A stretch of DNA of 64,000 nt. Origin: Xanthostigma xanthostigma. Taxonomy: Eukaryota > Arthropoda > Insecta > Raphidioptera > Raphidiidae. The notes beneath the pieces were generated by a model that did no database searches, was not told the DNA's origin, and was given only the letters and a program-made list of their open reading frames with translations. Location: contig OY754475.1 in assembly GCA_963575645.1 (NCBI GenBank), positions 9,486,001 through 9,550,000 on the forward strand, in the 5' to 3' direction. The translations under genes and the position numbers were made by a program. Within the stretch, counting starts at the first letter, position 1. Every line of letters starts with the position of its first letter. Shown piece after piece: positions 20,454 through 49,309 of this stretch.

Positions 20454-21073
20454 TCTATACTAATATATAAAGCTAAAGAGTTTGTTTGTTTGTTTGTTTG
20501 AACGCGCTAATCTCAGAAACTACTGGTTCAAATTAAAAAGATTTTTTTTGTTGGATAGCCCATTTATCAAGAAAGGCTCTAGGCTATATAATATCACGCT
20601 ACGACCATTAGAAGCGGAGCATTAATGAAAAATGTTGCAAAATGTATCTCAAAAATAAGCATCTATTCAGGTGAAATGCACTAACTAAATAGATATATTC
20701 ATATTAGCGTTGTGAGGACACAACGTCGGATGGCTCAATCGGTAGAGCATGCGACTGTCAATATCAGGGTCGTGGGTTCGAGCCCCACGTTGGGCGAATA
20801 TATTTTTATTTTTTTTTTTATTTTCTACATTGCTTTCTTCTAAGTTACATTTAAATTTCTTTTAATTTTATTTAATTTATTAAAAAAAATTATTACTTTA
20901 AAAAAGTATAAATACTGATTTTTATTGACAAAAGCTTTTGAATGGTAACTCCGATCATCATGAAATTTGGACACAACATTCATCTCGGTAAACTAAGGTG
21001 AATGTGTGTACTCATGTTCCTTCCTTCCCCATTCGTTCTTTTACACCCGGGTGAAACCGGACGGGACCACTAG
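20454..21073 (+). mobile_element. Helitron family 1 carrying tRNA-like cargo, copy B
   Basis: Begins TCTATACTAATATATAAAGC after A and ends with the CCCGG/CCGG hairpin, GGGACCAC and CTAG before T. At 620 bp it is about 280 bp longer than the short form, the excess lying between CTCAAAA and GACAAAAGCTTTTGAA. That excess contains a tRNA-like sequence and a T-rich trailer. Confidence 0.9.
20724..20796 (+). pseudogene. tRNA-Lys-like sequence inside Helitron copy B
   Basis: Contains GGCTCAATCGGTAGAGCATG (D arm, A box) and GGGTTCGAGCCCCACGTTGG (T arm, B box), ending GGGCG as eukaryotic tRNA-Lys does. The anticodon loop reads CTGTCAA, so the anticodon position is GTC rather than CTT. The anticodon stem and the 5' acceptor strand do not pair well, so this is a pseudogene. 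A T run follows within 15 nt. Confidence 0.8.
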
Positions 21074-21329
21074 TTAATAATATGTGGAACGACTCTATTA
21101 AGTTTAAACAATCAGCCTTTTCTCGAAAAACAGATTATTTTTGTATAAAATTCATGGCAAATTTATAAATATTTACGGTCAATTCAACTCACAATTATAA
21201 TTCACAAAAAACATAAAATTTTCAAATATATTTGTTAAGCTGAGCGTCATTTATTGCAACAAAAAACTTGCGTATATTTTTTTTGCACTATTCTCTATAA
21301 AATAGCTGTTTTAATGCGTGTATACATTA
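21074..21329. other. AT-rich spacer between Helitron ends
   Basis: No gene or repeat partner recognised. Confidence 0.4.
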
Positions 21330-21567
21330 CGAAAGTGCGGTAAAGTAAAACCAAACTGACTCCTATTAGCTACTAGTTCAAAAGCAAACAAAAAAATCTG
21401 TTTTAGTATCAAGTAGCGACATCTGTCAGAAATCGTTCAAAGCTATTTGTTCAGAAGCAAAGGTCGAATTTGCTAAAAGCTATTAGTTCAGATGCCGGGC
21501 CGCAAACGAAATACATTTCGCAGAATTTTTTCTATTGCGCCCGGATGAAATTGGGCCCGGTCGCTAG
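21330..21567 (+). mobile_element. Helitron-like 3' end, separate family
   Basis: Ends GCCCGGATGAAATTGGGCCC, GGTCG and CTAG followed by T, so it has a GC hairpin and CTRR terminus. The body has ATTAGCTACTAGTTC and CTATTAGTTCAGATG repeats. No 5' TC end could be fixed. Confidence 0.5.
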
Positions 21568-21585
21568 TGCCTTTATTTGAGTATA

Positions 21586-22245
21586 TCTATACTAATATAT
21601 AAAGCTGAAAAGTTTGTTTGTTTGTTTGGTAGAACGCGCTAATCTCAGAAACTACTGGTTCGAATTGAAAAATTTTTTTTTGTTGGATAGCGCATTTATC
21701 GAGGAAGGCTATAGGCTATATAATATCACGCTACGACCAATTGGACCGGAGCATCAATGAAAAATGTTGCATGATGTATCTTAAAATTTGTCCGTCATAC
21801 AAATATTATCAGGTGAAATGCCATAACTAAATATTGCAATATTAGCGCCTCACATTCACAAGCCCGGCTAGCTCAGTCGGTAGAGCATGAGACTCTTAAT
21901 GCCAGGGTTGTGAGTTCAAGCCCCACGTCGGCGAATATATTTTTATTTTTTTTATTTTCTACATTGCTTTCTTCTAAGGCTTGCATTTCAATTTTTTAAA
22001 ATTTTATTGCGACTAATTAAAATTAAATAAATCTAATTAATAGCTCATTTGAAAACTGTTACAACTGTATAGGTACCTATATAAAAATAATTTTCCTACG
22101 GTGTTTTCAAATATATATTTATTATATTTTATTTGAACGGTAACTCCGATCATTATGAAATGAACTAAGATGAATGTGCGTACTCATGTCCCCCCCTTCT
22201 CCATTCGTTCTTTTGCACCCGGGTGAAACCGGACGGGACCGCTAG
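21586..22245 (+). mobile_element. Helitron family 1 carrying tRNA-Lys cargo, copy C
   Basis: Begins TCTATACTAATATATAAAGC and ends with the CCCGG/CCGG hairpin, GGGACCG and CTAG before T. At 660 bp it is the longest copy in the window. The cargo lies after CTTAAAATTTGTCCG and is followed by TTTTTATTTTTTTTATTTTC. Confidence 0.9.
21862..21933 (+). pseudogene. tRNA-Lys(CTT) pseudogene inside Helitron copy C
   Basis: The sequence GCCCGGCTAGCTCAGTCGGT, then AGAGCATGAGACTCTTAA, matches eukaryotic tRNA-Lys(CUU), with anticodon CTT in the loop CTCTTAA. The T arm is GAGTTCAAGCCCCAC. The 3' acceptor strand is one base short (GTCGGCG) and the anticodon stem has mismatches. It is the best-preserved of the five tRNA-like cargoes. 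Confidence 0.88.
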
Positions 22246-22498
22246 TATATTATATGCCAACCGGAATATCATATTATTTTACCGAAAAGCTGGCATAACC
22301 CAATTAGCCGTGTGACCGCAGATATAAGCCCGTCACCTGGCGGACTTTTTAGAGTTCAAACGAGAGAAGATTACCGTTCGTCTGCATGAATTATAAGGTT
22401 TTATATCGCATTATGAAAAAGTTGGGCTGGGTTTTTCACGTAAACAAACTCTGATAACTTCTGCAAGCATCACACAGCCAACGTCCAATACTCTTGGT

Positions 22499-23077
22499 TA
22501 GAGCTGTAACAAACCGTATGTATTCGTTACTGAGTAACGGGTACATCGTCTGACTCGAAGTAACGAATCGTTACTTACAAATTCATTTAGTTACACGCAT
22601 TTGAAGGGTACACGGGAAGAAGGCGATTTGTCAGTAAAAATTCGAAATTAATTTTTTATGCCATCTTGTAGCCAAAAGTCGTACCTTTCTGTTGGTGTAT
22701 TCATTTTAGACAAGAATACGCTAGATCAAAAGTTATGAGCGTTGAAAGAAATGCATCAGCAAGTAAATGGCACGAACTTAAAACCTTCAAAATGCTCTCC
22801 TGCACAATTTACATTTTTTTGACAAATCGCCTTTTTCCCGTGTACCTTTCATTTGTCGTATCCATGTCAGTTCGACTCGTTTGATGCAGTTATACGTTAT
22901 ACGAACAAAGTCATACCGTATCACGTATGCGACGCGCCTCGATGCGATGGTACATGCCTGATGCTGTTAGTACACGATTGTATGTCGTATGAAAAGTAAC
23001 GAGTAACGTAACGATACGAAAGTAACGGGTACTGGTTCTTTAAATAACGAATACATACGGGTACTTTTACAGCTCTA
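22499..23077. mobile_element. Non-autonomous hAT element with a nested MITE
   Basis: The ends are inverted: TAGAGCTGTAACAAACCGTA on the left, TACGGGTACTTTTACAGCTC plus TA on the right. Both are followed inward by TGTATTCGTTA. Flanks CTCTTGGT (22491-22498) and CTCTTGAT (23078-23085) are an 8-bp duplication with one difference. The interior is rich in AGTAACG/CGTTACT. The segment 22603-22850 is a separate insertion. Confidence 0.9.
22603..22850. mobile_element. 248-bp MITE nested in the hAT element
   Basis: Inverted ends GGTACACGGGAAGAAGGCGA (left) and TCGCCTTTTTCCCGTGTACC (right) differ at one position. The pairing extends inward through TTTGTCA and outward through GAA. ATTT flanks both sides, possibly a 4-bp target duplication, although ends and superfamily are not certain. 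Confidence 0.8.
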
Positions 23078-23376
23078 CTCTTGATGTTATTAATAAAGTC
23101 AGACAAATGCATTTCAAACCTCCTATGTACAGAGCTAATTACCTCCTAGGTAAGACGAAGCTGTGAGATTCACTTGCGTTGCAACATTTAAATTGTATTA
23201 TTCTATATATTAATTAATTTTTAATCCTCGCTTTAAGATTTCGTAATTAAAAAATGCTAATTAATATACTTAATCCTTACTTTCTGAGACGAAGGCAACG
23301 CAGACTATTATTAAGAATTAATTCCTAAATACAAATAATCCGCTATTATAAATGTCTTTATGTAATAAGTTTGAGA

Positions 23377-23775
23377 CCGAGCGGGGTAGCGTAGAGCACT
23401 AGACTCGCATTCGGGAGGTACCGGGTTCGAATCTCGGCGGGGGCAGATGTTGCTGCGACTTTTTTCTGATGCCTCTCTCCGAGAAACGGTACGGTACCGG
23501 CCATCTTGTTGAGTTTCCCTCAATAATTCCAGATAAATATCGAGATGGTTCCTTATTCAAGACCATGGTCAATTACCGGTCAAACTCCTATGCTCAAAAT
23601 TTGTCTACCTTATTCTAATGTCCTAAAATTCCTTCATTTACTATTAATTCAGTTGAAGGTCAAAAATTGTAGAAAATAACGGGAAGTGTGGTAGAAAAAA
23701 AAACATAGTAATGGTGCGAATGGCGTCTGTTATGACATAAAGTCCAGAAACGGAAGTTAAACGCATTATTATTAT
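23377..23775 (+). mobile_element. tRNA-derived SINE with perfect 14-bp target duplication
   Basis: The head has a pol III A-box region (GGTAGCGTAGAGC) and a B box (GGTTCGAATC). The body contains TCTCCGAGAAACGG, CGAGATGGTTCCTTATTCAA and TAATGGTGCGAATGGCGTCT, and the tail is (ATT)n. TAATAAGTTTGAGA flanks both ends exactly (23363-23376 and 23776-23789). At 399 bp it is a complete copy and the best reference for this SINE family here. Confidence 0.95.
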
Positions 23776-23837
23776 TAATAAGTTTGAGAATTTCAACTTT
23801 TCTTAAAATAAATAACTTCAGTACCTAATTTTAATTA

Positions 23838-24000
23838 TACAGGATATGTTTGCTAAACATATGCCAAAAATTCAACTCTTATTCCGTGGATTATTTAAAA
23901 AGGATTTTGTCCTTTGCTGATTTTCGAAATGACGCTTTGTTTCGAAGTTACAGGACGATAAAAGTTTTTCAACACTAACAATATTATGTTACCTAAATAT
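23838..24000. mobile_element. TA-insertion MITE family AA, single-end copy
   Basis: Matches the left arm of 24017-24536 (TATACAGG..., CATATGCCAAAAA, TTTTGTCCTTTGCTGATTTT, TTTGTTTCGAAG, ACAGGACGATAAAAGTTTTT) and lies just upstream in the same orientation. No right end is present. Confidence 0.75.
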
Positions 24001-24016
24001 CGAATGCTTTTAATTA

Positions 24017-24536
24017 TACAGGGTCTTTGCTAAGCATACGCCAAAAAGTCAACGGATTATTCCCTGGATTATTTTAAAAACATTTTGTCTTTTGCTGATT
24101 TTTGGAACGTCACTTTGTTTCGAAGATACAGGACGATAAAAGTTTTTGACCAATAAAAATTTCAGGAAACAGTATCTTGTCACGTGAGCGACATTGTCAA
24201 ATGCCCACAAACAAACATAGCATTGTGTTCTGTTCAGAGACAATAAACGTTCACTTTTGTTAACATTTGAACTGTCCTCTGCAGCGCACCGAACCCAGCT
24301 TCGATATTAGCATCGTGTGAAGTGAGCACATAAAAGACATCACGAATTCTAGCGCCACAGCACCCTTGAAACCTAGCGACAATTCTAGCCAAGGCTCAGC
24401 GACCTTAATATTTATTTAATAAAATATCTTCGAAACAAAGTGGCTTTTCGAAAATCATCAAATGACAAAATATTCTTCAAATAACCTAAAGAATGAGCCT
24501 GGAAATTTTCGTCGTCTGTTTAGAAAACACCCTGTA
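24017..24536. mobile_element. TA-insertion MITE family AA, complete copy
   Basis: TACAGGGTCTTTGCTAA on the left faces AGAAAACACCCTGTA on the right, with TA on each side. The arms share GATTATTTTAAA/TTTGAAGAAT, ATTTTGTC, GCTGATTTT and CACTTTGTTTCGAAG over about 130 bp. The central part (AGCGCCACAGCACCCTTGAA) recurs at 28318-28380, and the CATTGTGTTCTGTTCAGAGA segment recurs near 62680. The TA target points to a Tc1/mariner-type source. No transposase. Confidence 0.82.
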
Positions 24537-25480
24537 TAGTGAATGATGAGAGGACGATTTTTTTATATACAAAAAGCCTTTGTTTAAATAAATAGTACAG
24601 AGCTGTGAAAAATGTGTCATTAAAACAATTTTAAAATACTAGTTAAAATGGAATTCATTTATGAGTTAAGCCTTTAATTTAAATTTATTTAACAGCAAGT
24701 TTTTTAGGTAGTACGGAAGTTTGTTAAATATATTCGTTATGGTAGAATTGAGTTTGCTTTACTATGACCTGAATCAAAACTTGTTAGAGCTGTTATTTAA
24801 GTAAACATTTTTTTTATATTCAAGTTTCCGTTCAGCGCCTTATTTGGATTCCATTTAACTGGCAAACAGCTGGCAGGCTCAAAGTTACGGAACATATTTA
24901 ATACTGCTGACATGAAATTAATAGTTTCATTTACAATATTTACATTAGTTCTAAGTTGTTTAACAAAAAATACAGTTACTTTATTGCCCGGGCAAATTTT
25001 GGTTTGGCAACTAAATGGTCAAGAAAACAACACATTAATTCTCATTTTACTGTGTCTCTTATTGTTTTGGACGTATTAATTTGGCTCAAAAAATTGGGAC
25101 CGAAATATTCGACTTTCTTTACACCTTCGCCCCTTGCTTCAATTTTTAAAAAATAACTTTCAAGTGTTACTGAAAAATTGTCCATATCAATTGACATGTA
25201 CTCCGTATGACATCACTACTATCCAACAGACCGTGGTAACATCGGTAATTTACCGACCTTGAAACTGCTTTTGCTTGTACGTAGACTGCAGACAATTGAA
25301 GTCACGCCTTGTTCGGTAAGTGATTCATTTTTAATTAAGTACTTAGCCAAAACTTGCTTGGTGCTTTTAAAAACGAAAAACATTTTTCCCCATTTACCTT
25401 TTTCAATAATCAGTGAAAAATAGGACAACTTCCAATAACAAAAAACAGCAGAATTTCCTTTCGTATTTCAATTGGTTTAT
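24537..25480. other. No recognisable gene or repeat
   Basis: AT-rich sequence with short open frames only (24956-25156 on plus, 25219-25428 on minus), none with a recognisable domain. Confidence 0.45.
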
Positions 25481-25580
25481 TACAAAATTTTATCGAGCGG
25501 GGTGGCGTAGTGGTGAGAGAACTAGCCTCGCATTCGAATCCCGGCGGGGACAGATAGAATAGAATAGAATAGAAAAATTC

Positions 25581-25668
25581 TTTTTTTGCTCGACGGGTAG
25601 AAAGCGTCCACTTTCGTCCCGCTGCGCTAAACGAAGTTGCCTCTTCCTGCCTACGTCGAGCAAAAAAA
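25581..25668. repeat. Palindromic module (GCTCGACG type)
   Basis: TTTTTTTGCTCGACGGGTAG faces CTACGTCGAGCAAAAAAA, with AGAAAGCG and TTCCTGC inside. The matching module at about 36591-36652 also has GCTCGACGTAGGCAGGAAG facing CTTTCTGCCCGTCGAGC. Confidence 0.82.
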
Positions 25669-25804
25669 TAGTATACACACCACGGGAAGTAAAGTAAGAA
25701 AGCCTAAGATCACATCTTTGTTGACCTCGGCTTCACCTCGGCCAACAATTATATGTGATCTCAGACATTTCTTACTTTACTTCCCTAGATGTGTAATATA
25801 CTAT
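25668..25804. repeat. Palindromic module (GGAAGTAAAGTAAG type)
   Basis: TAGTATACACACCACGGGAAGTAAAGTAAG... faces ...CTTACTTTACTTCCCTAG then GTGTAATATACTA. The inner stem has AGATCACAT/ATGTGATCT and the centre has GACCTCGGCTTCACCTCGGC. The related module lies at 36480-36590. Confidence 0.82.
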
Positions 25805-26291
25805 ATTTTGACGAAGTCCAGCCAATGGCTGTTCTGCTTAACCATCTTCAATTTTTACATAATATACATAAATAATATTTTACATATAAATGTACAATTA
25901 TTATGTCTTTTGTTCTTGGAAAAAATACATACACTAATAAACCGATATGAAAAATATATAGATGTGGCTGGGACTTTTTCCCCTGCTGCCTCTCACCGAG
26001 AAACGGTAATTCCTGTACTGGCCATCTTGTTCGGGTTTTTTTCATGGTTTCCCTCAATAATTCTAGATAAATATCGAGATGGTTCCTTATTCAATACTTC
26101 CTATGCACAAAATTTGCCTACCTTATCCTAACGTCCTAAAAGTCCTTCATTCTCCCATTGCCATTAATTAAGTGGAAGTTGAAAAATGTAGAAAATAACG
26201 GGAAATGTTGATAAATGGAAAATAGTAATGGTGCGAATGGCGTCGAGAAACGGACGTTAAACACATCATTATTATTAATACATAATTTTAT

Positions 26292-26756
26292 AACTGTCTA
26301 CATTAATAAAGGGTAGTTTGACAAGCACTGCTCTATATTATTTAACATACATCGGGAAACTTACAAATACATAGTCACATGTAATGACTAACTAAGAAAT
26401 TACTCTGTGATAGAACCAAAGTTTAAATCCAATCTTGAAATTAACTTCCGAAACAGATACATCTCTGCTCGCTCCTCTAATCTCAGTGTGGCAGCACTAT
26501 GTTCCACCCCGCCCCCTTTTCTTCCACTGCCGCCGCGGCGGCGGCCCACCCGACCGACATCATCACATATACACGCTTTAGCTTTCATATCGTCTGAGGC
26601 GGTACAACTCTACTATATTATCGTGTTATATTAATTCAGTTCTATTTAAAAATACACAACTATGTTACTTGCAAACTGTTAGAACGAGCTGGGATTCCCA
26701 AAACTACTTATAGAGTAGTCTTAACGTTATTCGATGAAGATAATCTGAAGATAGTA
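26292..26756. other. Sequence with a small GC-rich island
   Basis: Around 26498-26560 there is a GC-rich patch including CCGCCCCC and a GCCGCCGCGGCGGC near-palindrome, inside a 75-codon plus-strand open frame (26407-26634). It stands out from its AT-rich setting but shows no splice-flanked coding signal or domain that I can identify. Confidence 0.4.
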
Positions 26757-26895
26757 ATGCGTTTAACGTCCGTTCCTCGACTTTATGTCATAACAGACGC
26801 CATTCGCACCATTACTATTTTCCATCTATCCCGTTATTTTTCTACATTTTTTCAATTTCAACTAATTAATAGCAATGGGCGAATGAAGGATTTTT
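26757..26895 (-). mobile_element. 5'-truncated SINE, 3' half
   Basis: On the minus strand: AAGGATTTT-side start, GCCCATTGCTATTAATTAG, AGAAAAATAACGGG, TAATGGTGCGAATGGCGTCT, then GGAACGGACGTTAAACGCAT. This matches the 3' part of the SINE at 23377. Confidence 0.85.
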
Positions 26896-26932
26896 TTTTT
26901 TAAATTTTGGACGTCTAGTTTTTTAATATAAT

Positions 26933-27547
26933 TGTTGCGTGCCCCTTGTTGGGACGAGTATGGATTCTGTAGGAATCTTCTAGTAACGACGACAATAACA
27001 ATCGAAAGCAGGTAAAGACCAGACCTTTTCAAAGAATCGCTTGGAGAAACCAATACATGTAAATGAAAGGATATCGAGATGCTTCTAGAACCTTCGATAG
27101 GTGGGGGAAGAAGCTATAAAATGCGAGCGGATCGCTGGCGGAGTCTGTTGTTACTTCTTCGTGAGTTGTGTTGATACAAGCCTGGCGTTGCAGCATAAAT
27201 CAGTTATACTTTGGTGTGTGTAAACCATTGAGTACAATTAAATAAATCTGGTTCTACATAAATAGCTTCTGTAGTGTAAATGCAAGTGTGAATAAGTTAC
27301 TGTACTAGATAAACTTTGTTGTGTTTGTGTGTTGTAAATATTTTGTGTACATAATTTAGTGAATACATTCTCTGTTACTTAAGTTTTTTATTTTATTATT
27401 TGGAACTGCCGTTATTTTATTTCTGTTAACGTTATTATTGCTGTTAAGTTAAAGAAGTGCGCTTTCGTTTGTGTGTTTCACTGTTTTGTTAAACATTTAT
27501 TTTTGTAAATAAATAATTTCCACCACGGACTACAACAGTTTTGTTAA
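26933..27547 (+). mobile_element. Solo LTR fossil with likely 5-bp duplication
   Basis: Begins TGTTGCGTGCCCCTTGTTGG. It has a promoter-like CTATAAAATGCGAGCGG at 27115-27131 and ends after TTTCCACCACGG and ACAGTTTTGTTAA. ATAAT flanks both sides (26928-26932 and 27548-27552). The last 150 bp are shared with the LTRs at 13704 and 52047, so the three belong to one lineage. No coding interior is attached. It looks the best-preserved of the three at its ends. Confidence 0.78.
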
Positions 27548-27552
27548 ATAAT

Positions 27553-28317
27553 TATTTATAAATGAGAGCGTTGTTGGAAATACACAAAAATTTTGCAGAC
27601 AAAATGCTTTCAAATCTCATAATTCCAAAGTTATTAATAAAATACAAATCTGAAAACCATGTTTATTAGTCATTTTAATAAACAAAACGTCAACGATATT
27701 TTTAATCTCGACAAAAAAAGTGAAACAAATGCAGGCGAGCAGAGTTGTTTTGTTTTATTTCACAGGACGCTTGGATCAAGTGACAACGTTGCACAAACGG
27801 GACATTATACAAAGTATGAATATAATAACTATAAAGCTTTTGATGTTTAAATTATGTTCAGGAAGCACAATTAATTTACAGAAAAATATTGTTTCTTTTG
27901 TAGTGACATTTGCGACGACCAACGAAGTCACGCACGTTCACGTTGATCACGCACGCGCATCCAGGGCTGTACACAATCAAATAATTAACTGTAGATGTCG
28001 GTGCGGTTCTGTCTAAGGAAATATTTAACTATTGATTGACAGCAATTAATTCCAAAAAATTATTCTGTTTTATTGTACCTGTTTCCTACACAATAAAAAA
28101 ACATTTTTTTGCTTGGTGTTCTTTTGTTTTTCCATTTTCAAGTCTAAAGTTCGACGAAAACCTTTTTCAAAGCTTAAAGTCTAAAAGGTTTTGTTTAAAA
28201 AAAAATATAGTGTCAGGCCTACCTGCATCTCCCCCCCTCTTGCTACGCTAATGGTCACTGCGTGTGCACCAAATCCATCCTCAAAACTAGCTTAAAAGGA
28301 AAAAAAACAACATAAGA
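27553..28317. other. No recognisable gene
   Basis: Open frames of 63, 98 and 71 codons (27659-28251, plus) show no domain. A higher-GC stretch lies at 27910-27970. No repeat partner seen. Confidence 0.4.
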
Positions 28318-28380
28318 GCCATCACGAAACCCAGCGCCACAGCATGCTTGAAACCTAGCAGCCAAATCTAGCAAGGAATC
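28318..28380. repeat. Fragment of MITE family AA interior
   Basis: CCATCACGAAACCCAGCGCC through TTGAAACCTAGC and TCTAGCAAGG parallels 24339-24395 in the complete AA element. Confidence 0.6.
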
Positions 28381-28445
28381 ATAAGACAAAATAAGCCTCG
28401 TGTGCAGTGGTGTTAAAACACTCTCTCAACAGTGAACATTTAAAA

Positions 28446-28789
28446 TCTATACTAATATATAAAGCTGAAGAGTTTGTTTGTTTGGTTGGTTGAACGCGCT
28501 AATCTCAGGAACTAGTGGTTCAAATTGAAATTTTTTTTTGTTGAATAGCCCATTTATCGAGGAAAGCTATAGGCTATATAATATCACGCTACGACCAATA
28601 GGAGCGGAGCATCAATGAAAAATGTTGCAAAATGTAGCTCAAAATTTGTCCGTCCGACAAAAACTTTTGAACGGTAACTCCGATCATCCTGAAATTTGGA
28701 CATAACATTCATCTCACTAAACGAAGATGAATGTGAGTACTCGTGTATTCGTTCTTTTGCACTCGGGTGAAACCGGGCGGGACCACCAG
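28446..28789 (+). mobile_element. Helitron family 1, short form, copy D
   Basis: Begins TCTATACTAATATATAAAGC after A and ends with the CTCGG/CCGGG hairpin, GCGGGACCAC and CAGT. The terminal CTAG has changed to CCAG. Body as in the 7940 copy, no tRNA cargo. Confidence 0.88.
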
Positions 28790-30344: not shown

Positions 30345-30905
30345 AAGGCCGATTGTATTGATAATCGAATCAACAGACTGTTTATTAACAATAGAATAGA
30401 AAAAATGATATAAACGCAATTTGAGAAATTAAAGGTTACAAAACAGTTCGACTTTAGAGTTAAAGGAAAGGCACGCCACTGCATAAGCAAGTGGAAAGAT
30501 GCGTTGGACTGGTTGTAGGGAATAGTGATGGAACAATGCCGGAAGGACGAAAAAAACAGGAATTGGGAAGGAGTTTTGACGCCAGTTATTTTCACTGACA
30601 TTCATACGAAACAGTGATTTTGTGGGCATTGGTTACATCGCACAAAGCAACAAACGTTCCGCTCGGACAGTTTCGTAGCTTCTTCTTTATATATCCGATT
30701 AGACAAAGTCTTTTAGACGCAGAAATAGTTCATGAAAAACAGTGCCAACAAAAAATCAGTATAGAATATTATGTATGTCGTGTTCCAAAATCACTTAAAA
30801 AAAAAATTCAATGGTATCAAAGAGAGTCGTGATAACTCAAAGATCAGTAACTCAAAATACTCGACATAAGTTAACCGTCGAACCCACTGCCACTGTTATT
30901 CATTA
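30345..30905. other. No recognisable gene
   Basis: Short open frames on both strands without domains, no repeat partner found. Confidence 0.4.
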
Positions 30906-31228
30906 CTAGCGGTTCCGCCCGGTTTCACCCGGGTGCAAAAAAAAATGTGTATGTGAGTACACACATTCATCTTAGTTTACCGAGATGAATGTTGTGTCCA
31001 AATTTCATGATGATTGGAGTTACAAATTTTCAGTTACACTTTGTAAAATTTTTCATCGATGCTCCGCTCCTATTGGTCGTAGCGTAATATTATTTAGCCT
31101 ATAGCTTTCCACGATAAATGGGCTATCCAACAAAAAAAAAAATTTTTAATGTGAGCCGGTAGTTCCTGAGATTAGCGCGTTCAACCAAACAAACAAACAA
31201 TCTCTTCAGCTTTGTATATTAGTATAGA
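30906..31228 (-). mobile_element. Helitron family 1, short form, copy E
   Basis: On the minus strand it begins TCTATACTAATATACAAAGC and ends CCCGG/CCGGG hairpin, GCGGAACCG, CTAG. Carries the family body without tRNA cargo, 323 bp. Confidence 0.88.
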
Positions 31229-31924: not shown

Positions 31925-33195
31925 AAATTGGCCAGAGCTGAAACGCTTCCCTTCTCCAATTTCAACCGACAGTTGAGAAGAAAGAGTAGGGTAATCGTTT
32001 CGCTAAGGAGGTAATTGGCCTGGATTGGACGAAATATGACACGCTGCTCCTTCTTTGATTTCAACCGGCAGTTGAGAGGAAATAATGGGAGAATCGATTC
32101 GTTGGTAAGTAATTGGCCTGGAACGGACGAAAAGTGAAGCGCTTCTCTTTCTTCGATTTCAACCAGTAGTTGAGAGGAAAGAGTGGGATAATCGTTTCGC
32201 TAGGAAGGTAATTGGCCTGGATCGGACGAAATATGACACGCTTCCCTTTATTTGACTTCAATTGGCAGTGGAGAGGAAAGAGTGGGAGAATCGTTTTGCT
32301 AGGGAGGTAAGTGGCCTGGATCGGACGAAAAGTGGAACGCTACTCCTTCTTTGATTTCAACCGGCAGTTAAGAGGAAACAATGGGAGAATCATTTCACCA
32401 GGGAGGTAATTGGCCGGGATCAGACGAAATGTGACACGCTGCTCCTTCTTTGATTTCAACCGGCAGTTGAGAGGAAAGAGTGGGAGAATCGTTTCGCTCG
32501 GGAAGTAAGTGGCCTGGATCGGACAAAAAGTGGAACGCTTCTCCTTCTTTGATTTCAACCGGCAGTTGAGAGGAAACAGTGGCAGAAACGCTTTTGCTAC
32601 GGTGGTATAATTGGTCTGGATCGGAAGAAAAGTGGAAAGCTTCTCCTTCTTCGATTTCAACCGGCAGTTGAGAGGAAAGTGTAACATAATTACAATTATT
32701 TACTTTAAATATTAAACAAGTTGAATTAGTTCAACTATATTCCTTTATTAAAAATTTATTGTAGTCACATAATTTGTAAGTTGCTTAATAATTTAGCATA
32801 TTCAAAAAATCTATAAATTCCAATTCAAAATTTAAAAAATTCAATTCTCCACTGTATTTAAAACGATTAAAAAACGAATATTATAATTGACCGAAATCTA
32901 GTTATTTTCTAAAAATTTATAAGAAATAACTATTGGATTTTCGCGTAAAAATAGTTTTATTGTATATCGTATATTTGTTTATTGTATATTTCGAATCACT
33001 GTCTAAATACAACATTTTATCAAATTCAACCTGCGATTTTAATACACGTTCCGAACCTCCAAAGTCGTTATAAAAGAGTGGGAGAATCGTTTCGCTAGGG
33101 AGGTAATTGGCCTGGAAAGGACGAAATGTGACACGCTTTCCCTTATTTGACTTCAACCGGCAGTTGAAAAAAAAGAGTCCCAGAAATACTTTGCT
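31925..33195. repeat. About 100-bp satellite array, interrupted
   Basis: The phrase TTTCAACCGGCAGTTGAGAG recurs roughly every 98-102 bp from 31950 to 32670 (about eight units) and again at 33150. Each unit also has GTGGGAGAATCGTTTCGCTA and GGTAATTGGCCTGGATCGGA. Where a unit is 102 bp the minus strand stays open, giving repeated FPLNCRLKSKKEK peptides, but the phase is lost between other units. The array is interrupted at 32680-33072. Confidence 0.93.
32680..33072. mobile_element. 393-bp insertion inside the satellite, 4-bp duplication
   Basis: Intact satellite units read GAGAGGAAAGAGTGGGAG. Here AAAG occurs on both sides of the insert (32676-32679 and 33073-33076), so removing the insert and one AAAG restores the unit exactly. 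The ends are TGTAAC and GTTATA, a short imperfect inverted pair. The size, TG start and 4-bp duplication fit a solo LTR fossil, but no relative is visible in the window. Confidence 0.8.
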
Positions 33196-38865: not shown

Positions 38866-38867
<2 letters not shown>

Positions 38868-38896
<29 letters not shown>

Positions 38897-41895: not shown

Positions 41896-42150
41896 TCACT
41901 CTCTAGCACAATGAATGCATATTTTTTCTACGCATGGTAAACTGACTGGTTTTTTGCATCTAACGCAGCGCAGATTCGTTTTTCTGTCATTTTTGTAGCT
42001 GCATATAAGACACCTTTTTCTTTTATAAGGTTCAACTTCTTCAGTTTCAGGAGAAGGTACAGGTTTATCTAAAAATTTAGATATACCTGTACGAAGTTCT
42101 CTTGGAAGTCTATTGTTAGCTAGTCTCGCATTAAAATGTTGTATAGTCAC
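41896..42150 (-). pseudogene. piggyBac transposase C-terminal cysteine-rich domain, remnant
   Basis: The 84-residue translation ends with the spacing RCLICSYKND, LRCVRCKKPVSLPC, VEKICIHC. These are paired CxxC motifs typical of the C-terminal cysteine-rich domain that binds the ends in piggyBac transposases. The preceding residues (RLANNRLPRELRTGISK) resemble the linker before that domain. The catalytic DDD core is absent. In the full-length family the protein is about 550-600 residues, so this is roughly the last seventh. The frame is open to its natural stop. Confidence 0.85.
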
Positions 42151-42261
42151 TCTCTAATTCATCATTCCACTGTAGCACTACTTTTTCATAATCTGGATCC
42201 GTAGATCGTACTGTTTTACTTCCAGAAACCATTGTACAAATGTTACGTATACGGTGACAAT

Positions 42262-42276
42262 GGGTCTCACAGACCC
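42262..42276. promoter_or_regulatory. Internal copy of the piggyBac subterminal palindrome
   Basis: GGGTCTCACAGACCC, preceded by CGGTGAC as at the element ends. It repeats the terminal design at 41525-41539 and 42433-42447 and is probably a transposase-binding site or an internal end duplicated during deletion. Confidence 0.55.
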
Positions 42277-42559
42277 TGTAGAGTTTTTAACTATTCGCTA
42301 TAAATCTATGGTTACAAATAATAACACATGCTTTACGGCATCTAACTAACAACTGAATAGTAGGAGGGTATCTGACTAGGCGGACCGACACGAGCAACAG
42401 TTTAAGAGTTAGAAGGTTTTGATTATATCAATGGGTCTCATAGACCCAGGGTCACCAGTTAAGGGTTAAAACTTTATTATTTTACGCTCTTTAGTGACCG
42501 TTTTCAAAGAAGGTTCAATTCAAAAACAAAACTTATAAATTATATTTGTAACAATTATT

Positions 42560-42722
42560 ATTATTTTATTCAACATATTTATTAACGTAAGTTTGTAACA
42601 TGAATATTATTTAATTCAACATATTTATTAACGTAAGTTTGTAACCTGAATATTATTTAATTCAACATATTTATTAACGTAAGTATGTAACCTGAATATT
42701 ATTTAATTCAACATATTTATTA
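42560..42722. repeat. 46-bp minisatellite, about 3.5 units
   Basis: CAACATATTTATTAACGTAA begins at 42571, 42617 and 42663, with a partial unit at 42709. The linker is GTAACCTGAATATTATTTAA. The units are almost identical. Confidence 0.92.
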
Positions 42723-42838
42723 ATTACTATAGCCATTTTAATGTTAAGCGCTTTTCGTGGATATCAATATTGCAACGTAAGTTAACTTAAAAAACGGCGG
42801 CAATCTACAAATTTGAGCAAAGCCGGACCGGGCCGCTA
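42723..42838 (+). mobile_element. Helitron family 2, 3' terminus
   Basis: TTAAGCGCTTTTCGTGGATA through GGCGGCAATCTACAAATTTG to CCGGGCCG and CTAG, followed by T. Parallel to 41310-41428. Confidence 0.75.
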
Positions 42839-43176
42839 GTATACTGTAAAGGAACGTCGCCTAACGAAATTAATAATGTAACACGTGGAAGGCCCTTAAA
42901 AAATTATAAGGTTATCGAAATTCTAAAATGGCACTGAGAAATAACGGTTACGGCTGACATAAATTTAAATTCTTATTTACAAGACGATGCTAAAGGCAAA
43001 TTGGCTTCTCTAGCCCACCCACAACATACGCGGCCGGAATAATACAGTGTGTCCAATAAAAAGTTGTATGTCAACAATGCAAGAAATACGGGAGTGTAAA
43101 AAGCATCAGGTCTACTGTCCTGAAAAAATATTCAACTTAAAAACATTCATTGAAAGAATACAATAGAAAAGATAAA
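42839..43176. other. No recognisable feature
   Basis: No repeat partner, open frame or RNA signal recognised. Confidence 0.4.
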
Positions 43177-43738
43177 TCTATACTAATATATAAAGCTGAA
43201 GAGTTTGTTTGTTTGTTTCAACGCGCTAATCTCAAGAACTAGTGGTTCAAATTGAAAAAAAATTTTTGTTGGATAGCCCATTTATCGAGGAAGGCTATAG
43301 GCTATATAATATTACGCTACGACCATTACGAGCGGAGCTTTAATGAAAAATGTTGCAAAATGTATCTCAAAAATAAGCTTCTTTTCATGTGAAATGCACT
43401 AACTGTCAAAAATGCGACTGTCAAAATCAGGGTCGTGGACTCGAGCCCCACGTTGGGCGAATATATTTTTATTTTTTTTTTATTTTCTACATTGCTTTCT
43501 TCTAAGGCTTACATTTAAATTTATTTTAATTTTATTTAATAATTTTTAAAAAAATATTAATTAAAAAAAGTTTAAATACTGCTTTTTATCGACAAAAACT
43601 TTTGAACGGTAACTCCGATCATCATGAAATTTGGACACAACATTCATCTCGGTAAACTAAGATGGAATGTGTGTACGCATGTTTCTCCCTTCCCCATTCG
43701 TTCTTTTACACCCGAGTGAAACCGGACGGGACCGCTAG
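43177..43738 (+). mobile_element. Helitron family 1 with partial tRNA-like cargo, copy F
   Basis: Begins TCTATACTAATATATAAAGC after A and ends with the CCCG/CGG hairpin, GGGACCG and CTAG before T. 562 bp. Most of the D arm of the cargo is missing. Confidence 0.9.
43411..43459 (+). pseudogene. Partial tRNA-Lys-like cargo in copy F
   Basis: Retains GCGACTGTC, AATCAGGGTCGTGGACTCGA, GCCCCACGTTGGGCG. The 5' half through the D arm is deleted and the B box is altered (GGACTCGA). Confidence 0.8.
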
Positions 43739-43785
43739 TAAGACATAAGTAGATACATTGTGTTTATAAAACATTTCATTTAGCT

Positions 43786-43870
43786 CAGGGGTCCTCAAAC
43801 TTTTTGAAGGCAGGGGCCGAGAATACTTTGATTTTAATTCGGCGGGCCGCAACACAAGGGAAACATACCT
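43786..43870 (+). mobile_element. hAT-type left end only
   Basis: CAGGGGTCCTCAAACTTTTT, GGGCCGAGAA and CGGCGGGCCGC have the look of hAT ends. No matching right end or 8-bp duplication was found downstream. Confidence 0.5.
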
Positions 43871-44515
43871 TCGTAATAATATTGCATTAATAACTTATTG
43901 TTAGTTTACCCGCGGTTATCAAAATGTTTAACTTGTAGCGAAAAATGTTCTAGCTTACCTTAAACGTTCTCGAATCGGCAGGCCGTCGTAATAAATCTGT
44001 AACAAAAAAACATCCAACAATTAGGTTTTTTGAATGAAATATTTTTTTTACATAAATTGAAAGATCACATACATGTTTTATGGCAAAACTGCTTATATTA
44101 TTTTTTTTTGTAGTAGTTTTTTCCGATCGCATTGTATGTCACGAAACTGTGCATATTGTATAAAGTCGTACGTGTTTACATTAAATATTTCGGAGGTGTT
44201 GTGTTCCACCTGACGCTGAACAGAGCTGAATTTCTCTCCCCCTTTTTCTTTCTCTAACTTATACCTTCACTTATACACTTTAAATATGATTATACTTTTC
44301 ATTCTTCCTTTCTTCACGAGGGAAACAGATTATCAATTTAGAAAAGTGATTGTTTAGTCTCCACAACATCATCAGGAAAGTCAATTGTTATAATTTGCTA
44401 ACTAATGAGGTGGCATTCCAACATTCGTAATTCATCATCTCTTACAAATTTAAAAAAAAAAATGTAAAATATTCTTGCTTCAATAAATGTATGACGAACA
44501 TGTTATCTATACTAA
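43871..44515. other. No recognisable gene
   Basis: AT-rich with a 60-codon minus-strand frame (43950-44132), no domain. Confidence 0.4.
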
Positions 44516-45126
44516 TATATACAGCTGAAGAGTTTGTTTGTTTGTTTCTTTAAACGCGCTAATCTCAGGAACTACTGTTTCAAATTGAAAAAAAAAATTT
44601 TGTTGCATAGCGGATATCCCATTTATCGAGGAAGGCTATAGGCTATATAATATCACGCTACGACCATTAGGCGCGGAGCATTAATGAAAAATGTTGCAAA
44701 ATGTATCTCAAAAATAAGCTTTTATTCAGGTGAAATGCACTAACTAAATATACTCATATTAGCGTTGTGAGTACACAACGTCGTATGGCTCAATCGGTAG
44801 AGCATGCGACTGTCAATATCAGGGTCGCCCTTTTGTTGGGCGAAAATATTTTTATTTTTTTTTATTTTCTACATTGCTTTCTTCTAAGGCTTACATTTAA
44901 ATTTCTTTTAATTTTATTTAATTAATTAAAAAAAATTATTAGTTAAAAACAGTATAAATACTGCTTTTCATCGACAAAAGCTTTTGAACGGTAACTCCGA
45001 ACATCATGAAATTTGGACACAACATTCATCTCGGTAAACTAAGATGAATGTGTGTAGTGTGTACTAATGTTCCTCCCTTCCCCATTCGTTCTTTTACACT
45101 CGGGTAAAACCGGACGGGACCGCTAG
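44516..45126 (+). mobile_element. Helitron family 1 with tRNA-like cargo, copy G
   Basis: Begins TCTATACTAATATATACAGC after A and ends with the hairpin, CGGGACCG and CTAG before T. 611 bp. An extra short duplication (GTGTGTAGTGTGTACT) lies near the 3' end. Confidence 0.9.
44779..44842 (+). pseudogene. tRNA-Lys-like cargo in copy G
   Basis: TATGGCTCAATCGGTAGAGC and GCGACTGTCAATATCAGGGT are as in copy B. The T arm is replaced by CGCCCTTTTGTTGGGCG, so the B box is gone. Confidence 0.82.
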
Positions 45127-45312
45127 TATAGTGTCATAAGTATGTTACACTCTATTTTCCTATATCTGTTCTATTGTATATATTATTTAAATCATTTTTA
45201 TTACTGCTCTATTATTTATTTTAGATTCTAAATTTTAATTTTTGTAACTATTTGTCATTTATTATTGTATGGCTTTGCGGCTTTTACCTAAATTTAATAA
45301 TAATAATAATAA
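45127..45312 (+). mobile_element. Possible LINE 3' end with (TAA)n tail
   Basis: ATGGCTTTGCGGCTTTTACC followed by TAAATTTAATAATAATAATA is a typical non-LTR 3' end with a trinucleotide tail. No coding remnant is attached and it begins exactly where the Helitron ends. Confidence 0.45.
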
Positions 45313-45522
45313 TGTAACGAATATTCGCTTTTGAATTCGCGAATATTTCAATTACTGTATCATTAGTCCAGTCCGCCGTAATTTTTTTATCATTGAAAGT
45401 TACAGTTTAACCAACAAAAATGACAACTTAAATACATTTTAAATTCGCACGAGGCGACGAGTTTACTGACTGTGCACGTACTCGCCGCTCGGTTCCTTTG
45501 ACTCGTGGTAGAAAAACCGACT

Positions 45523-45777
45523 TCCCTACAGTGTTTTCAAATAAATATTTATTATATTTTATTAATTACATTAATTATTGATTTAAAAGAAATTTATTAC
45601 TTAAAAAAAGTATAAATACTGCTTTTTATCGACAAAAACTTTTGAACGGTAACTCCGATCATCATGAAATTTGGAGACAACATTCATCTCGGTAAAGTAA
45701 GATGAATGTGCGTACTCATGTTCCTCGCTTCCCCATTCGTTCTTTTGCACCCGTGTGAAACCAGACGGAACCGCTAG
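45523..45777 (+). mobile_element. Helitron family 1, 3' half only
   Basis: Carries the trailer that follows the tRNA cargo in the long copies (AAAGTATAAATACTGCTTTT), then TTTTGAACGGTAACTCCGAT, the hairpin region and CTAG at 45774-45777. It therefore derives from a cargo-bearing copy. The 5' part is missing. Confidence 0.8.
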
Positions 45778-46642
45778 TATACTATATGCTTGCCGATAAC
45801 GAATAGATATCTGGTCATCGGGAAACCGGTCAACGTGGTGCGTCTACACAAAACTCCCAAACAAACTTGCGTAATATATTATAATATACCTTGCACATAT
45901 CGTGAATATGGAAAGAGGGGCGGCTACATCTGAGGTGGGAGCTTTCACTTGGAAAATTAATTAAGTTTTATAGCAAGCACAGAACGAGAGAGAGAAATAG
46001 AGAGTGACTAGGAAGAGAGAGAGAGAGAGAGAGAGACATATATGTATGGTTGAATTCTGAGCTCGCACAGAGATTGTTCTGTATCGCTTTAATGAATAAT
46101 TAAATCAGATTCTGCTATACGAAATGGCGTCACGTTAATTAAATTTTAGAATGTGCATATAAACCAACACGGAGCGGTTCTCTCTGTGCCCGGCGTCGCC
46201 TCGCCTCGCGTCAAGCAGTGCGTTTCTCCATTTAGACGATGCGTACGATCGATCGCGACACTTCAATGTACAGACAAGACAGTGACGCACACCTTAAACG
46301 GTGAACCGGAGTACGTGACGCAGTCGACGGATCTCAAAATCGGACAGCTTGTTTATTTTTGTGGACGAAAGACAAAATCACTTAAGTCAAATCTTTTGTA
46401 TTTTTAACTTCCAAAGCTGTTTCACACAAATTTTGATGCCAAGGAATCCGAATCTGTCATAAAATATAAGAGTTCCTACTTTACCCTCTTCTCCCCAGGT
46501 GCTGGAGTGGGAATGCCAAATTTGGATTCAAAAGCTTTTCACAAATTATTAGACAGGTATTTTTTTCTTTTCCTCTTTATCGATGAACTTTCATAGGTTT
46601 TAGGGTGATACTGGTGGTCTGAGACATCGTGTACATATATTA
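45778..46642. other. GA microsatellite and a GC-rich open frame
   Basis: A GA run lies at 46015-46036. An 84-codon plus-strand frame (46153-46407) opens in a GC-rich patch (GCCCGGCGTCGCCTCGCCTC) unlike its surroundings. It has no recognisable domain and no clear splice context. A single-exon or UTR remnant cannot be excluded. Confidence 0.4.
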
Positions 46643-46993
46643 TTAGCGGTCCCGCCCGGTTTCACCCGGGTGCAAAAAAGATGGGGAGGGATTTGAGTAC
46701 GCACATTCATCTTAGTTTACCGAGATGAATGTTGTGTCCAAATTTCATGATGATCGGAGTTACCGTTCAAAAGTTTTTCTCAAACGGACAAATTTTGAGT
46801 TACACTTTGCAACATTTTTCATTGATGCTCCGCTCCTATTGATCGTAGCGTGATATTATATAGCCTATAGCCTTCCTCGATAAATAGGCTATCCAACAAA
46901 TAATTTTTTTCAATTCGATCCAGTAGTTCCTGAGATTAGCGCGTTCAACCAAACAAACAAACGAACTCTTCAGCTTTTGTATATTAGTATAGA
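46643..46993 (-). mobile_element. Helitron family 1, short form, copy I
   Basis: On the minus strand it begins TCTATACTAATATACAAAAG and ends CCCGG/CCGGG hairpin, GCGGGACCG, CTAA then T. 351 bp, no tRNA cargo. Confidence 0.9.
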
Positions 46994-47800
46994 TAAAAAA
47001 TTAGGATAAATTGAATATAAGCGATTTTGCCATTTATCCGCAGATAGATTTGCCATTTTAACTGATATTTTCTTTATTTGCTTTGAACACGATACTATTA
47101 TTGGTCTTCTAGTTGATTACAATATATGATAGTATAACAAGTAAAAACAAAACCGCTCACTGTATTTGCACAAACTTATTTACAACTAACTAATTGAAAA
47201 TTAAGAAATAATTCCACTGCTTTCCAGTGGCGCCTCGTGAACTTTTTAAATGGGTTATCCGCAGGGTCAAGCGAAGGTGTCTTATAACACGGGCTGAAAA
47301 TGAGGGTGGGGGGGTAATTAAATTATGAATCACATCCATGTTTATGATGTTTGAATTATTAACTATTTTCAAACACTGCTAACAACAATCTACACTGTAA
47401 CACCAGTCACTTCTGCGTCCTAAGCCGTATGTACCGTCGAGTCATAACCGTCGAAGGTGTTGACTGAATGAGATAGATTCAGTAAACACTTCTAGCATGT
47501 GACAGTGATAGATGCTTATTTGTACTAATGTGCTGATGTTAAATGCAGCTCAAAGTCAATCTAAGTAGCACGTTATAAGTTGTGGGTCAGGAGTTGCACG
47601 GTGTATACCGGGGGTATTTAATGATGTGCTGCTTGGGAGCGCAGAACAGCACCTGACTGCAAGAAACGAGTTTTGTGGTCTGCCAGTTACTGTTATACTT
47701 TAGCGTTGATTTTGTAACTATTGCACTATTTTCTAACATATTGGTTGTTCTGCAGCTCTGCAGCGCTTACAGAGGAAACGCCACTGAACTTTTCAGTCTA
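46994..47800. other. No recognisable gene
   Basis: Unique-looking sequence. CAGTGGCG at 47225 and CGCCACTG at 47779-47786 resemble a hAT end pair but lack a target duplication. Confidence 0.4.
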
Positions 47801-48324
47801 TACAGAATGATTTTTAAGTTGATGTTTTTTTGCCAGCGTGTAAATATCAAATATACAAACAAATATTTCCAGTAACTTTTTTATCAAAACTTAAAAATGA
47901 AAAATAAACGGGCTTTCAAAGTTTTATTACATTTTATCAAATTTTGAGGTTGGTCGTGGCGTTATGTTATGTCACTATGGAAATATGTTATGTCAATATC
48001 AAGTATTCACAGAAATAGTTCGAAGTTGTCCCCGTTTTGTTGGACACAAAGATGCGTGCGTCGTAGCCATGCTTATAGTAGCGATAAGGGTCTTCTGCGA
48101 ATTATTTGGGATGCATTTCCGATTCATGATATCATTTCTTCGCGTGTGTTAACCGGGCTTTTGATTTAATTAAATAAAATTTAAAAAAATTAATTAAACT
48201 TTAAAAAGCAATTTCTCTCTTATTTTTGAGTTTTGATAAAAAAGTTGCTTATAAAGTATTTGTTCATCTATTTGATTTTTACACGCTGTTAAAAAAGAAG
48301 AACCAACTTAAAAATCACTCTGTA
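47801..48324. mobile_element. TA-insertion MITE family BB, copy 2
   Basis: TACAGAATGATTTTTAAGTT on the left faces AACTTAAAAATCACTCTGTA on the right, with TA directly outside each end. The arms of about 110 bp share GCGTGTAAATATCAAAT/ATTTGATTTTTACACGC and AACTTTTTTATCAAAACTT. The central segment is in reverse orientation relative to the 7354 copy. Confidence 0.88.
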
Positions 48325-48664
48325 TATAAAAAGTCGCAATTTTTTTAAATTTTTTTGTTATACTCGTAGGTTGGTTTGATTCAGCACGAGCCAACGATAG
48401 TTTAGTATCGGAAAAAGCGCTCGTTACATACTAGGATAATGTCAAGCATATTAGGGCTGATAATTCATTTAAAGCTGTCTTCAAGTTTTACGGCCTGGAA
48501 TATTACAATTACGGTGCGCACGTATATTTATGGCCGTTAATAATTATCTACCTGTATATAGGGCTTACGACTGCAGTTAAAAAATAACGACAGTGCTTTA
48601 AATTAACTCAGCTCTATTAAGTCTTACAATAGGCTATTTCACTCTCATCTTTAAATTGTCTTAA
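48325..48664. other. No recognisable feature
   Basis: No repeat partner or frame recognised. Confidence 0.4.
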
Positions 48665-49309
48665 TCTATATACTAATATATAAAGCTGAAGAGTTTGCTT
48701 GTTTGTTTGTTTGAACGCGCTAATCTCAGAAACTACTGGTTCGAATTGAAAGAATTTTTTTTGTTGGATAGCCCATTTATCGAGGAAGGCTATAGGCTAC
48801 ATAATATTACGCTATGACCAATTGGAGTGGAACATCAATGAAAAATGTTGCAAGATGTATCTTAAAATTAGTCCGTCTGACAAATATCATCAGGTGAAAT
48901 CCCTTAACCTATTGCAATATTAGCGCACGACGGTTACAGATTGGATAGCTCAGTCGGTAGAGTGTAAGATTCTTAATGGGGTTCAAGCCCCACGTCGGCG
49001 AATATACAGTTTTTTTTTTTTTTAATTTCTACATTGCTTTCTTCTAAGGCTTACATTTAAATTTTTTAAAATTTTATTACGACTAATTAAAATTAAATAT
49101 TTATTATATGTATTGAAAGAAATTTTATTACTTAAAAAAAGTATATAAATACTGCTTTTTAACGACAAAAACTTGGAACGGTAACGCCGATCATTATGAA
49201 GTTTGGACACAACATTCATCTCGGTAAACTAAGATGAATGTGCGTACTCATGTCCCTTTCTTCCCCATTCGTTCTTTTGCACCCGGGTGAAACCGAGCGG
49301 GACCGCTAG
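48665..49309 (+). mobile_element. Helitron family 1 with tRNA-Lys cargo, copy J
   Basis: Begins TCTATATACTAATATATAAA after A and ends with the CCCGG-GTGAAA-CCG hairpin, GCGGGACCG and CTAG before T. 645 bp, trailer as in the other long copies. Confidence 0.9.
48940..49000 (+). pseudogene. tRNA-Lys(CTT)-like cargo in copy J
   Basis: GGATAGCTCAGTCGGTAGAG and GATTCTTAATG keep the D arm and a CTT anticodon loop. GGGGTTCAAGCCCCACGTCG keeps the B box. The variable region is shortened. Closest to the cargo of copy C. Confidence 0.82.

What the first reader, a model, noticed from the sequence alone, without database searches (positions are those of the whole stretch)
20454..49309. A Helitron lineage that carries and spreads a tRNA-Lys-derived cargo
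Eleven family 1 Helitron copies or fragments are visible. Four (7940, 28446, 30906, 46643) are 320-350 bp with no cargo. Five (20454, 21586, 43177, 44516, 48665) are 560-660 bp and hold, at the same internal point between CTCAAAA and GACAAAAACTTTTGAA, a tRNA-like sequence followed by a T-rich trailer. The 3' fragment at 45523 has the same trailer. Copy C (21862-21933) is nearly a tRNA-Lys(CTT). The shared position implies one ancestral capture followed by transposition of the loaded form. Two cargo types exist: CTT loops (C, J) and CTGTCAA loops (B, F, G), so it has diversified. A pol III gene inside a rolling-circle element could give each copy its own promoter.
Basis: partly seen in the sequence, partly recalled or inferred. 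Interest (0 to 1): 0.75.

Follow-up and report, generated by a model that had tools for sequence, protein, structure and literature searches.

The report
Mobile DNA carrying a transfer-RNA gene
A family of copy-and-paste DNA elements in this genome appears to have picked up a lysine transfer-RNA gene once and then spread it, in slowly decaying form, to thousands of places, which is an unusual kind of gene pick-up but probably a passive one.

Summary
In the window's own 623 Mb genome the loaded right junction occurs 7,580 times and the empty junction 6,457 times at up to 3 mismatches, controls 0. All 28 distinct loci picked only for likeness to tRNA-Lys(CTT) lie beside at least one Helitron arm. 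The oldest-looking loaded type (D) has a tRNA consensus 72 of 73 identical to the tRNA-Lys(CTT) that I recalled; the abundant types B and C are more decayed. The insert includes about 65-70 bp before the tRNA and 130-270 bp after it. No target duplication was found. I read this as one capture of a tRNA-Lys gene with its flanks, then spread of the loaded element. The tRNA part is not better conserved than the rest, so I see no sign of function. Not settled: whether empty copies came first, the donor gene, a single SINE insertion as source, and any pol III transcription. A Helitron-captured tRNA gene has been suggested before only for a doubtful plant case in the papers I saw.

The parts
7940..8281 (+). 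empty Helitron copy A
20454..21074 (+). loaded Helitron copy B (B-type cargo)
   Evidence: listed as L001 375-995
20654..20725 (+). leader of the cargo in copy B
   Evidence: shared with other loaded copies
20726..20797 (+). tRNA-Lys-derived stretch of copy B, anticodon loop CTGTCAA (probe limits, within a base or two)
   Evidence: Rfam tRNA 30.4 bits at 20731-20788
20798..20924 (+). AT-rich trailer of copy B
21586..22246 (+). loaded Helitron copy C (C-type cargo; right arm partly rearranged)
21862..21933 (+). tRNA-Lys(CTT)-like stretch of copy C
   Evidence: Rfam tRNA 33.4 bits
28446..28790 (+). empty Helitron copy D (window copy, not cargo type D)
   Evidence: exact empty junction at 28641-28681
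30905..31228 (-). empty Helitron copy E
43177..43739 (+). loaded Helitron copy F (B-type; 5' part of tRNA stretch lost)
   Evidence: exact loaded junction at 43575-43616
44506..45127 (+). loaded Helitron copy G (B-type; part of tRNA stretch lost)
   Evidence: loaded junction at 44957-44998 with 2 mismatches
45522..45778 (+). 3' fragment H: end of the trailer plus right arm
   Evidence: exact loaded junction at 45615-45656
46642..46993 (-). empty Helitron copy I
48667..49310 (+). loaded Helitron copy J (C-type; tRNA stretch decayed)

Best explanation
A short non-autonomous Helitron (A|TC...CTAG|T) acquired, once, a piece of DNA that held a tRNA-Lys(CTT) gene with its 5' and 3' flanks, at an internal place between GTCCGTC and CGACAAAA. 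The loaded element was then copied thousands of times by Helitron machinery acting in trans. The tRNA decayed along the successive source copies (near-intact type D, then the more numerous types C and B) and travels as a passenger. Shown: Helitron ends, shared joints, thousands of loaded copies, tRNA-Lys likeness, leader and trailer. Inferred: one capture event by break repair or template switching, mobilisation in trans, lack of function, that D came before B and C.
For: Ends: A before the element in 45 of 57 extracted elements, final T in 55 of 57. Loaded right junction 7,580 and empty junction 6,457 hits genome-wide at up to 3 mismatches, controls 0. tRNA cores within 3 mismatches: B-type 3,335, C-type 1,368, controls 0. 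Of 28 distinct loci picked by tRNA likeness alone, 28 have at least one Helitron arm on the same strand within about 1.5 kb: 25 the left, 22 the right, 19 both arms plus leader and trailer. Type D tRNA consensus 72 of 73 to the recalled tRNA-Lys(CTT); 20 of 20 loci given to Rfam pass its cut-off, 36.6-56.4 bits (these were picked for tRNA likeness). Seven D-type copies (L031, L037, L051, L062, L063, L071, L073) have a longer left joint, GTCCGTC|ATATGC or near (exact in L051 only), where empty copies read GTCCGTC|CGACAAAA; the usual right joint is TTTTTAT|CGACAAAA. Longest exact word shared by the two sides of the tRNA: 9 bases in the D consensus, 8 in C; for C, 343 of 500 shuffles give 8 or more. 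Arm distance from own consensus: D 0.049 (14 copies), C 0.036 (27), B 0.035 (4), junction-picked 0.031 (12), empty 0.052 (12).
Against: No single copy shows both the long left joint and the usual right joint: the seven D-type copies with the long left joint have an altered right part, so the clean insertion is put together from different copies. C-type copies have CCGACAAA left and ACGACAAA right of the cargo, which could be read as a short duplication. The arm tree (68 rows) does not part loaded from empty: the best split leaves 6 of 12 empty copies with the loaded ones. No donor tRNA-Lys(CTT) gene was found: a 20-base canonical anticodon arm has 0 exact hits in the genome searched. The 3' hairpin is no more stable than shuffles (z 0.40). 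One tRNA-Lys(CTT)-like stretch (L097) lies outside the family, without leader or trailer.
Confidence: 0.7

Rival explanations
1. The cargo is a tRNA-Lys-headed SINE that inserted once into a Helitron source copy; the composite then spread as a Helitron. The leader would be old Helitron sequence and the trailer the SINE body.
For: A close precedent: in Heliconius a tRNA-derived SINE subfamily (Metulj 4) lies with a Helitron-like element in a 21,461-copy repeat, data not shown (PMC4016481, passages). The trailer could be a SINE body. The short repeat CGACAAA on both sides of the cargo in C-type copies.
Against: No duplication around the tRNA/trailer unit above chance. None of 28 tRNA-selected loci is a unit without arms. 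The trailer starts with a T-rich stretch. Type D is 72 of 73 to a real tRNA.
Confidence: 0.18
2. Polarity reversed: the loaded form is the older one in this lineage and the empty copies are a deletion derivative that then spread as well.
For: Empty and D-type copies have similar arm distances, 0.052 (12 copies) and 0.049 (14); the arm tree does not put empty copies outside the loaded ones; C-type copies have CGACAAA on both sides of the cargo, and a deletion between these repeats would give the empty joint.
Against: The cargo holds a tRNA gene, so at some earlier time arms without it must have existed. Empty copies have their own, fairly diagnostic base 11 columns before the joint (A in 10 of 12; T in 48 of 55 loaded).
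Confidence: 0.25
3. Repeated, independent insertions of a tRNA-derived SINE into Helitron copies.
For: Loaded copies differ in cargo type.
Against: 7,580 copies share one right joint at up to 3 mismatches; leader, tRNA and trailer are homologous in types B, C and D.
Confidence: 0.01

Closest known systems
Lepidopteran Helitrons with captured gene fragments (silkworm, 3,724 fragments from 268 genes; PMC3789558, passages)
   Same: TC and CTRR ends, high copy number, host DNA carried inside
   Different: That survey looked for captures with BLASTX, so an RNA gene could not be seen; here the cargo is a tRNA gene with flanks, in thousands of copies
Metulj subfamily 4 with a Helitron-like element in Heliconius melpomene (PMC4016481, passages)
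   Same: tRNA-derived sequence in one repeat unit with a Helitron-like element, many thousands of copies
   Different: There a known SINE with solo copies, its carrier unidentified, data not shown; here no copy without arms among 28 tRNA-selected loci, defined Helitron ends and an upstream leader
tRNA-Cys cluster overlapping Helitron annotations in Arabidopsis (PMC10701932, passages)
   Same: tRNA gene thought to lie in a Helitron
   Different: There a tandem cluster in which Helitron finders gave no reliable prediction; here dispersed copies with Helitron ends
Helraiser read-through capture (PMC4778049, passages)
   Same: Helitron taking host DNA along
   Different: Helraiser captures DNA downstream of its 3' end; here the cargo is internal, with both arms kept

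Membership tests
Helitron (non-autonomous) | 5' TC and 3' CTRR ends | tested here: met
   All four consensus sequences start TCTATACTAAT and end CGCTAG followed by T
Helitron (non-autonomous) | insertion between A and T without target duplication | tested here: met
   A before the element in 45 of 57, T after CTAG in 55 of 57 extracted elements; empty target sites in other genomes not available
Helitron (non-autonomous) | hairpin near the 3' end | tested here: inconclusive
   A 5-pair stem about 13 bases before the end, but z 0.40 against shuffles
Helitron (non-autonomous) | an autonomous RepHel partner with the same ends | not tested
   89 Helitron_like_N matches exist in the genome; their ends were not compared with this family
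tRNA-derived SINE | tRNA head at the very 5' end of the repeat | tested here: not met
   A shared leader of about 65-70 bases lies before the tRNA in types B, C and D; holds for the cargo as a whole
tRNA-derived SINE | target-site duplication | tested here: not met
   Longest shared word 8-9 bases, at chance level for C; the seven long left joints and the usual right joints show no duplication; CGACAAA on both sides in C-type is the only candidate
tRNA-derived SINE | copies dispersed on their own | tested here: not met
   0 of 28 tRNA-selected loci lack an arm; cargo lacking tRNA likeness was not sought
tRNA-derived SINE | LINE-like 3' tail | not tested
   No LINE partner was sought for the trailer
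functional tRNA-Lys(CTT) gene | intact cloverleaf | tested here: not met
   D consensus has one change (72 of 73) that breaks an anticodon-stem pair; B and C stems are more damaged. ARAGORN calls a tRNA in 24 of 28 distinct tRNA-selected loci, 3 of 30 loci L001-L030, 0 of 15 junction-picked loci
functional tRNA-Lys(CTT) gene | transcription by pol III | not testable with these tools
   A- and B-box-like stretches and T runs are in the consensus (motif names recalled); no expression data

The most novel reading that the evidence does not exclude
Helitron-borne tRNA-Lys units are, or were, transcribed by pol III in numbers that matter to the host or to the element: some D-type copies supply tRNA-Lys(CTT) or its fragments, or transcription opens the DNA and favours rolling-circle copying of loaded elements. 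That no exact canonical tRNA-Lys(CTT) anticodon arm was found in the searched genome leaves this open, although withheld letters, an assembly gap or a diverged host gene explain it more simply.
Probability: 0.05. Interest if true: 0.85.

Novelty: new variant of a known kind. Interest (0 to 1): 0.5.

Why it matters
Helitrons are known to carry fragments of protein genes. A tRNA gene spread with its flanks to thousands of sites would be a clear case of a non-coding RNA gene captured by a Helitron. It also warns that tRNA-like counts in such genomes can be inflated by Helitrons and not only by SINEs: the tRNA family search had 57,534 first-look candidates here, of which 63 were scored. The near-intact and more decayed cargo types give a series in which the decay of a captured RNA gene inside a mobile element could be dated.

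Tried and rejected
Repeated SINE insertions: rejected, because leader, trailer and right joint are shared. Conservation of the tRNA part as a sign of function: tested, result against. A loaded clade in an arm tree: not resolved. Cargo or arms in other collections: 0 hits in genome contigs for a 32-base trailer piece and 0 in viral contigs for two arm patterns; these collections are of bacteria, archaea and viruses, so this says little. Donor gene: canonical tRNA-Lys(CTT) patterns gave no match with 0 or 1 mismatch over 73 bases (21 matches with 2 or 3), no exact 44-base match (41 with 1 or 2 mismatches) and no exact 20-base arm. Of three further places fetched, one is a tRNA-Lys(TTT), one a tRNA-Arg(TCG), one a tRNA-Lys(CTT)-like stretch without leader or trailer. 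A literature search for the terminal sequence listed two unrelated papers. Ten random 5-kb pieces held no arm, leader or tRNA match and one weak trailer match; about 1 copy was expected from the genome-wide density. Selection: L001-L030 were picked by likeness to copy C; L031-L051 and L062-L073 by tRNA likeness (33 loci, 5 repeats of a place dropped, 28 left); L082-L096 from exact-junction hits on the + strand of contig C1 (15 of the 100 places listed, of 7,580); two of these 15 were left out of the conservation count as not B-type; 4 of 72 elements were dropped from the arm tree for gaps.
Full report
What is there. Probes cut from the window find ten copies or fragments of one element in the 64 kb. 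Four are empty (324-352 bp), five are loaded (563-661 bp) and one is a 3' fragment that begins in the trailer. In the aligned copies the loaded ones have, at one internal place, a leader, a tRNA-like stretch and an AT-rich trailer. Rfam scores two of the five tRNA-like stretches just over its cut-off; ARAGORN calls none in the window.

The carrier is a Helitron by its ends. In 57 extracted elements the base before the element is A in 45, and the base after CTAG is T in 55. All four consensus sequences run from TCTATACTAAT to CGCTAG|T. A five-pair hairpin lies about 13 bases before the end but is not more stable than shuffled sequence. There is no open frame of 170 codons in the window, stop to stop. 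The genome holds RepHel genes: 89 Helitron_like_N matches, many of them in long open frames. I did not link their ends to this family.

How common. The genome searched has 623 Mb and the window is C12:9486001-9550000. At up to 3 mismatches the loaded right junction occurs 7,580 times and the empty junction 6,457 times, with no hit of the reversed-pattern controls. These are undercounts: in the window the same patterns catch 3 of 6 loaded right ends and 3 of 4 empty copies. By these patterns the window holds 6 where about 1.4 would be expected, so it is a local cluster. Ten random 5-kb pieces held no copy, where about 1 was expected.

One cargo, at least three types. Its tRNA consensus is 72 of 73 identical to the canonical sequence that I recalled; the one difference breaks a pair of the anticodon stem. 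All 20 loci of this group given to Rfam pass the tRNA cut-off, the best at 56.4 bits, but they were picked for tRNA likeness. Of 15 loci picked only by an exact loaded junction (on one strand of contig C1), 13 are closest to type B, all 15 align over at least part of the tRNA stretch, and 2 pass the Rfam cut-off. B-type cores number 3,335 and C-type cores 1,368 at up to 3 mismatches. By distance of the arms from their own consensus, D (0.049, 14 copies) and the empty form (0.052, 12) look older than C (0.036, 27) and B (0.035, 4; junction-picked set 0.031, 12). The numbers are small and the sampling differs between groups: C-type copies were picked by likeness and the junction set by an exact match. 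The simplest reading is that a real tRNA-Lys gene was taken up and then decayed in successive source copies.

Capture or SINE. I took 28 distinct loci whose only selection was likeness to tRNA-Lys(CTT); 5 repeats of the same place were dropped from 33. Every one has at least one Helitron arm on the same strand within about 1.5 kb: 25 the left arm, 22 the right, 19 both arms plus leader and trailer. So the cargo was not seen without arms. The tRNA is preceded by a shared leader of about 65-70 bases, which a SINE transcript starting at the tRNA would not carry. Seven D-type copies have a longer left joint than the rest: L051 reads TTTGTCCGTC|ATATGC, and L031, L037, L062, L063, L071 and L073 are close to it. 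Empty copies read TTTGTCCGTC|CGACAAAA, and the usual right joint of loaded copies is TTTTTAT|CGACAAAA. Put together this is a clean insertion without duplication. But no copy shows both of these joints: the seven have an altered right part. B-type and other D-type left joints are shorter, and C-type has CCGACAAA there, perhaps by exchange with empty copies. The longest exact word shared by the two sides of the tRNA is 9 bases in the D consensus and 8 in C; in C, 343 of 500 shuffles reach 8 or more (no shuffles were made for D). A single SINE insertion remains possible, and Heliconius offers a precedent for a SINE/Helitron-like composite (PMC4016481, passages).

What is not shown. The arm tree (68 rows, 4 of 72 dropped for gaps) does not separate loaded from empty copies, so I cannot say from it that the empty form came first. 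The donor gene was not found: no exact match to a 20-base canonical anticodon arm exists in the sequence searched, although 22 strong tRNA matches of 66 bits or more do, and of two of these that I read one is a tRNA-Lys(TTT) and one a tRNA-Arg. The host gene may be diverged, missing from the assembly or in letters that are withheld. Function of the cargo is not supported: in 13 B-type copies the tRNA part has 5.4% substitutions against 3.5% for the rest, more than any 72-base stretch elsewhere in the element. Of those 50 substitutions, 23 are in the seven bases of the 5' acceptor arm; without them the tRNA part is about as variable as the rest.

Mechanism. I think a non-autonomous element took in the tRNA locus during repair or replication with template switching. 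The cargo is internal and flanked by both arms, so it does not look like the read-through past the 3' end shown for Helraiser (PMC4778049, passages). The loaded element was then multiplied in trans by a RepHel. These steps are inferred. A non-autonomous Helitron moves as DNA (established knowledge), so a pol III transcript is not needed for its spread.

Novelty. Capture of gene fragments by Helitrons is well known, also in the silkworm (PMC3789558, passages). For tRNA genes, a 2023 paper on Arabidopsis says that its own doubtful case would be the first captured non-coding RNA (PMC10701932, passages). My searches of the held open papers for Helitron with SINE, tRNA, tRNA gene, tRNA-Lys, polymerase III, non-coding RNA gene, gene capture and snRNA terms listed titles and abstract starts only; among them I saw no described Helitron family with a captured tRNA gene. 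Subscription papers and repeat libraries were not searched. That the genome is lepidopteran is my recollection of similar repeats and was not tested. I call it a new variant of a known kind.

Noticed in passing
window 1-64000: The window is about four times richer in this Helitron family than the genome average, counted with the same two junction patterns (6 against about 1.4 expected).
   Followed up: partly
L097 157-232 (G000:C2:4642760-4643260): A tRNA-Lys(CTT)-like stretch with intact anticodon stem, followed by CCA as in a mature tRNA, lies without leader, trailer or arms in 501 bases, between pieces of other repeats. Perhaps a retroposed tRNA.
   Followed up: partly
window 42545-42723; L097 232-348; L056 4751-4966: A 46-base tandem repeat of the window also lies next to the tRNA-like stretch of L097, and the same region of L097 matches a random genome piece, so it seems to belong to a dispersed repeat.
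   Followed up: no
whole genome G000: No exact copy of the canonical tRNA-Lys(CTT) anticodon arm (20 bases) was found in the searched sequence; host gene diverged, missing or withheld.
   Followed up: partly
L031, L036, L037, L044, L051, L071, L073: Several D-type copies lack the first 36 bases of the usual right arm and have extra bases between trailer and right arm: a further sub-type.
   Followed up: no
L026 1297-2637: A B-type copy ends directly at the 5' end of a C-type copy, as if it had inserted at TCTA|TA within the first bases of the C-type element; a nested insertion would make that B copy the younger.
   Followed up: partly
window 6498-6924, 17987-18754, 19424-20137, 31939-32679: Long-period tandem repeats (194, 331, 156 and 99 bases), 81-97% matches.
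   Followed up: no
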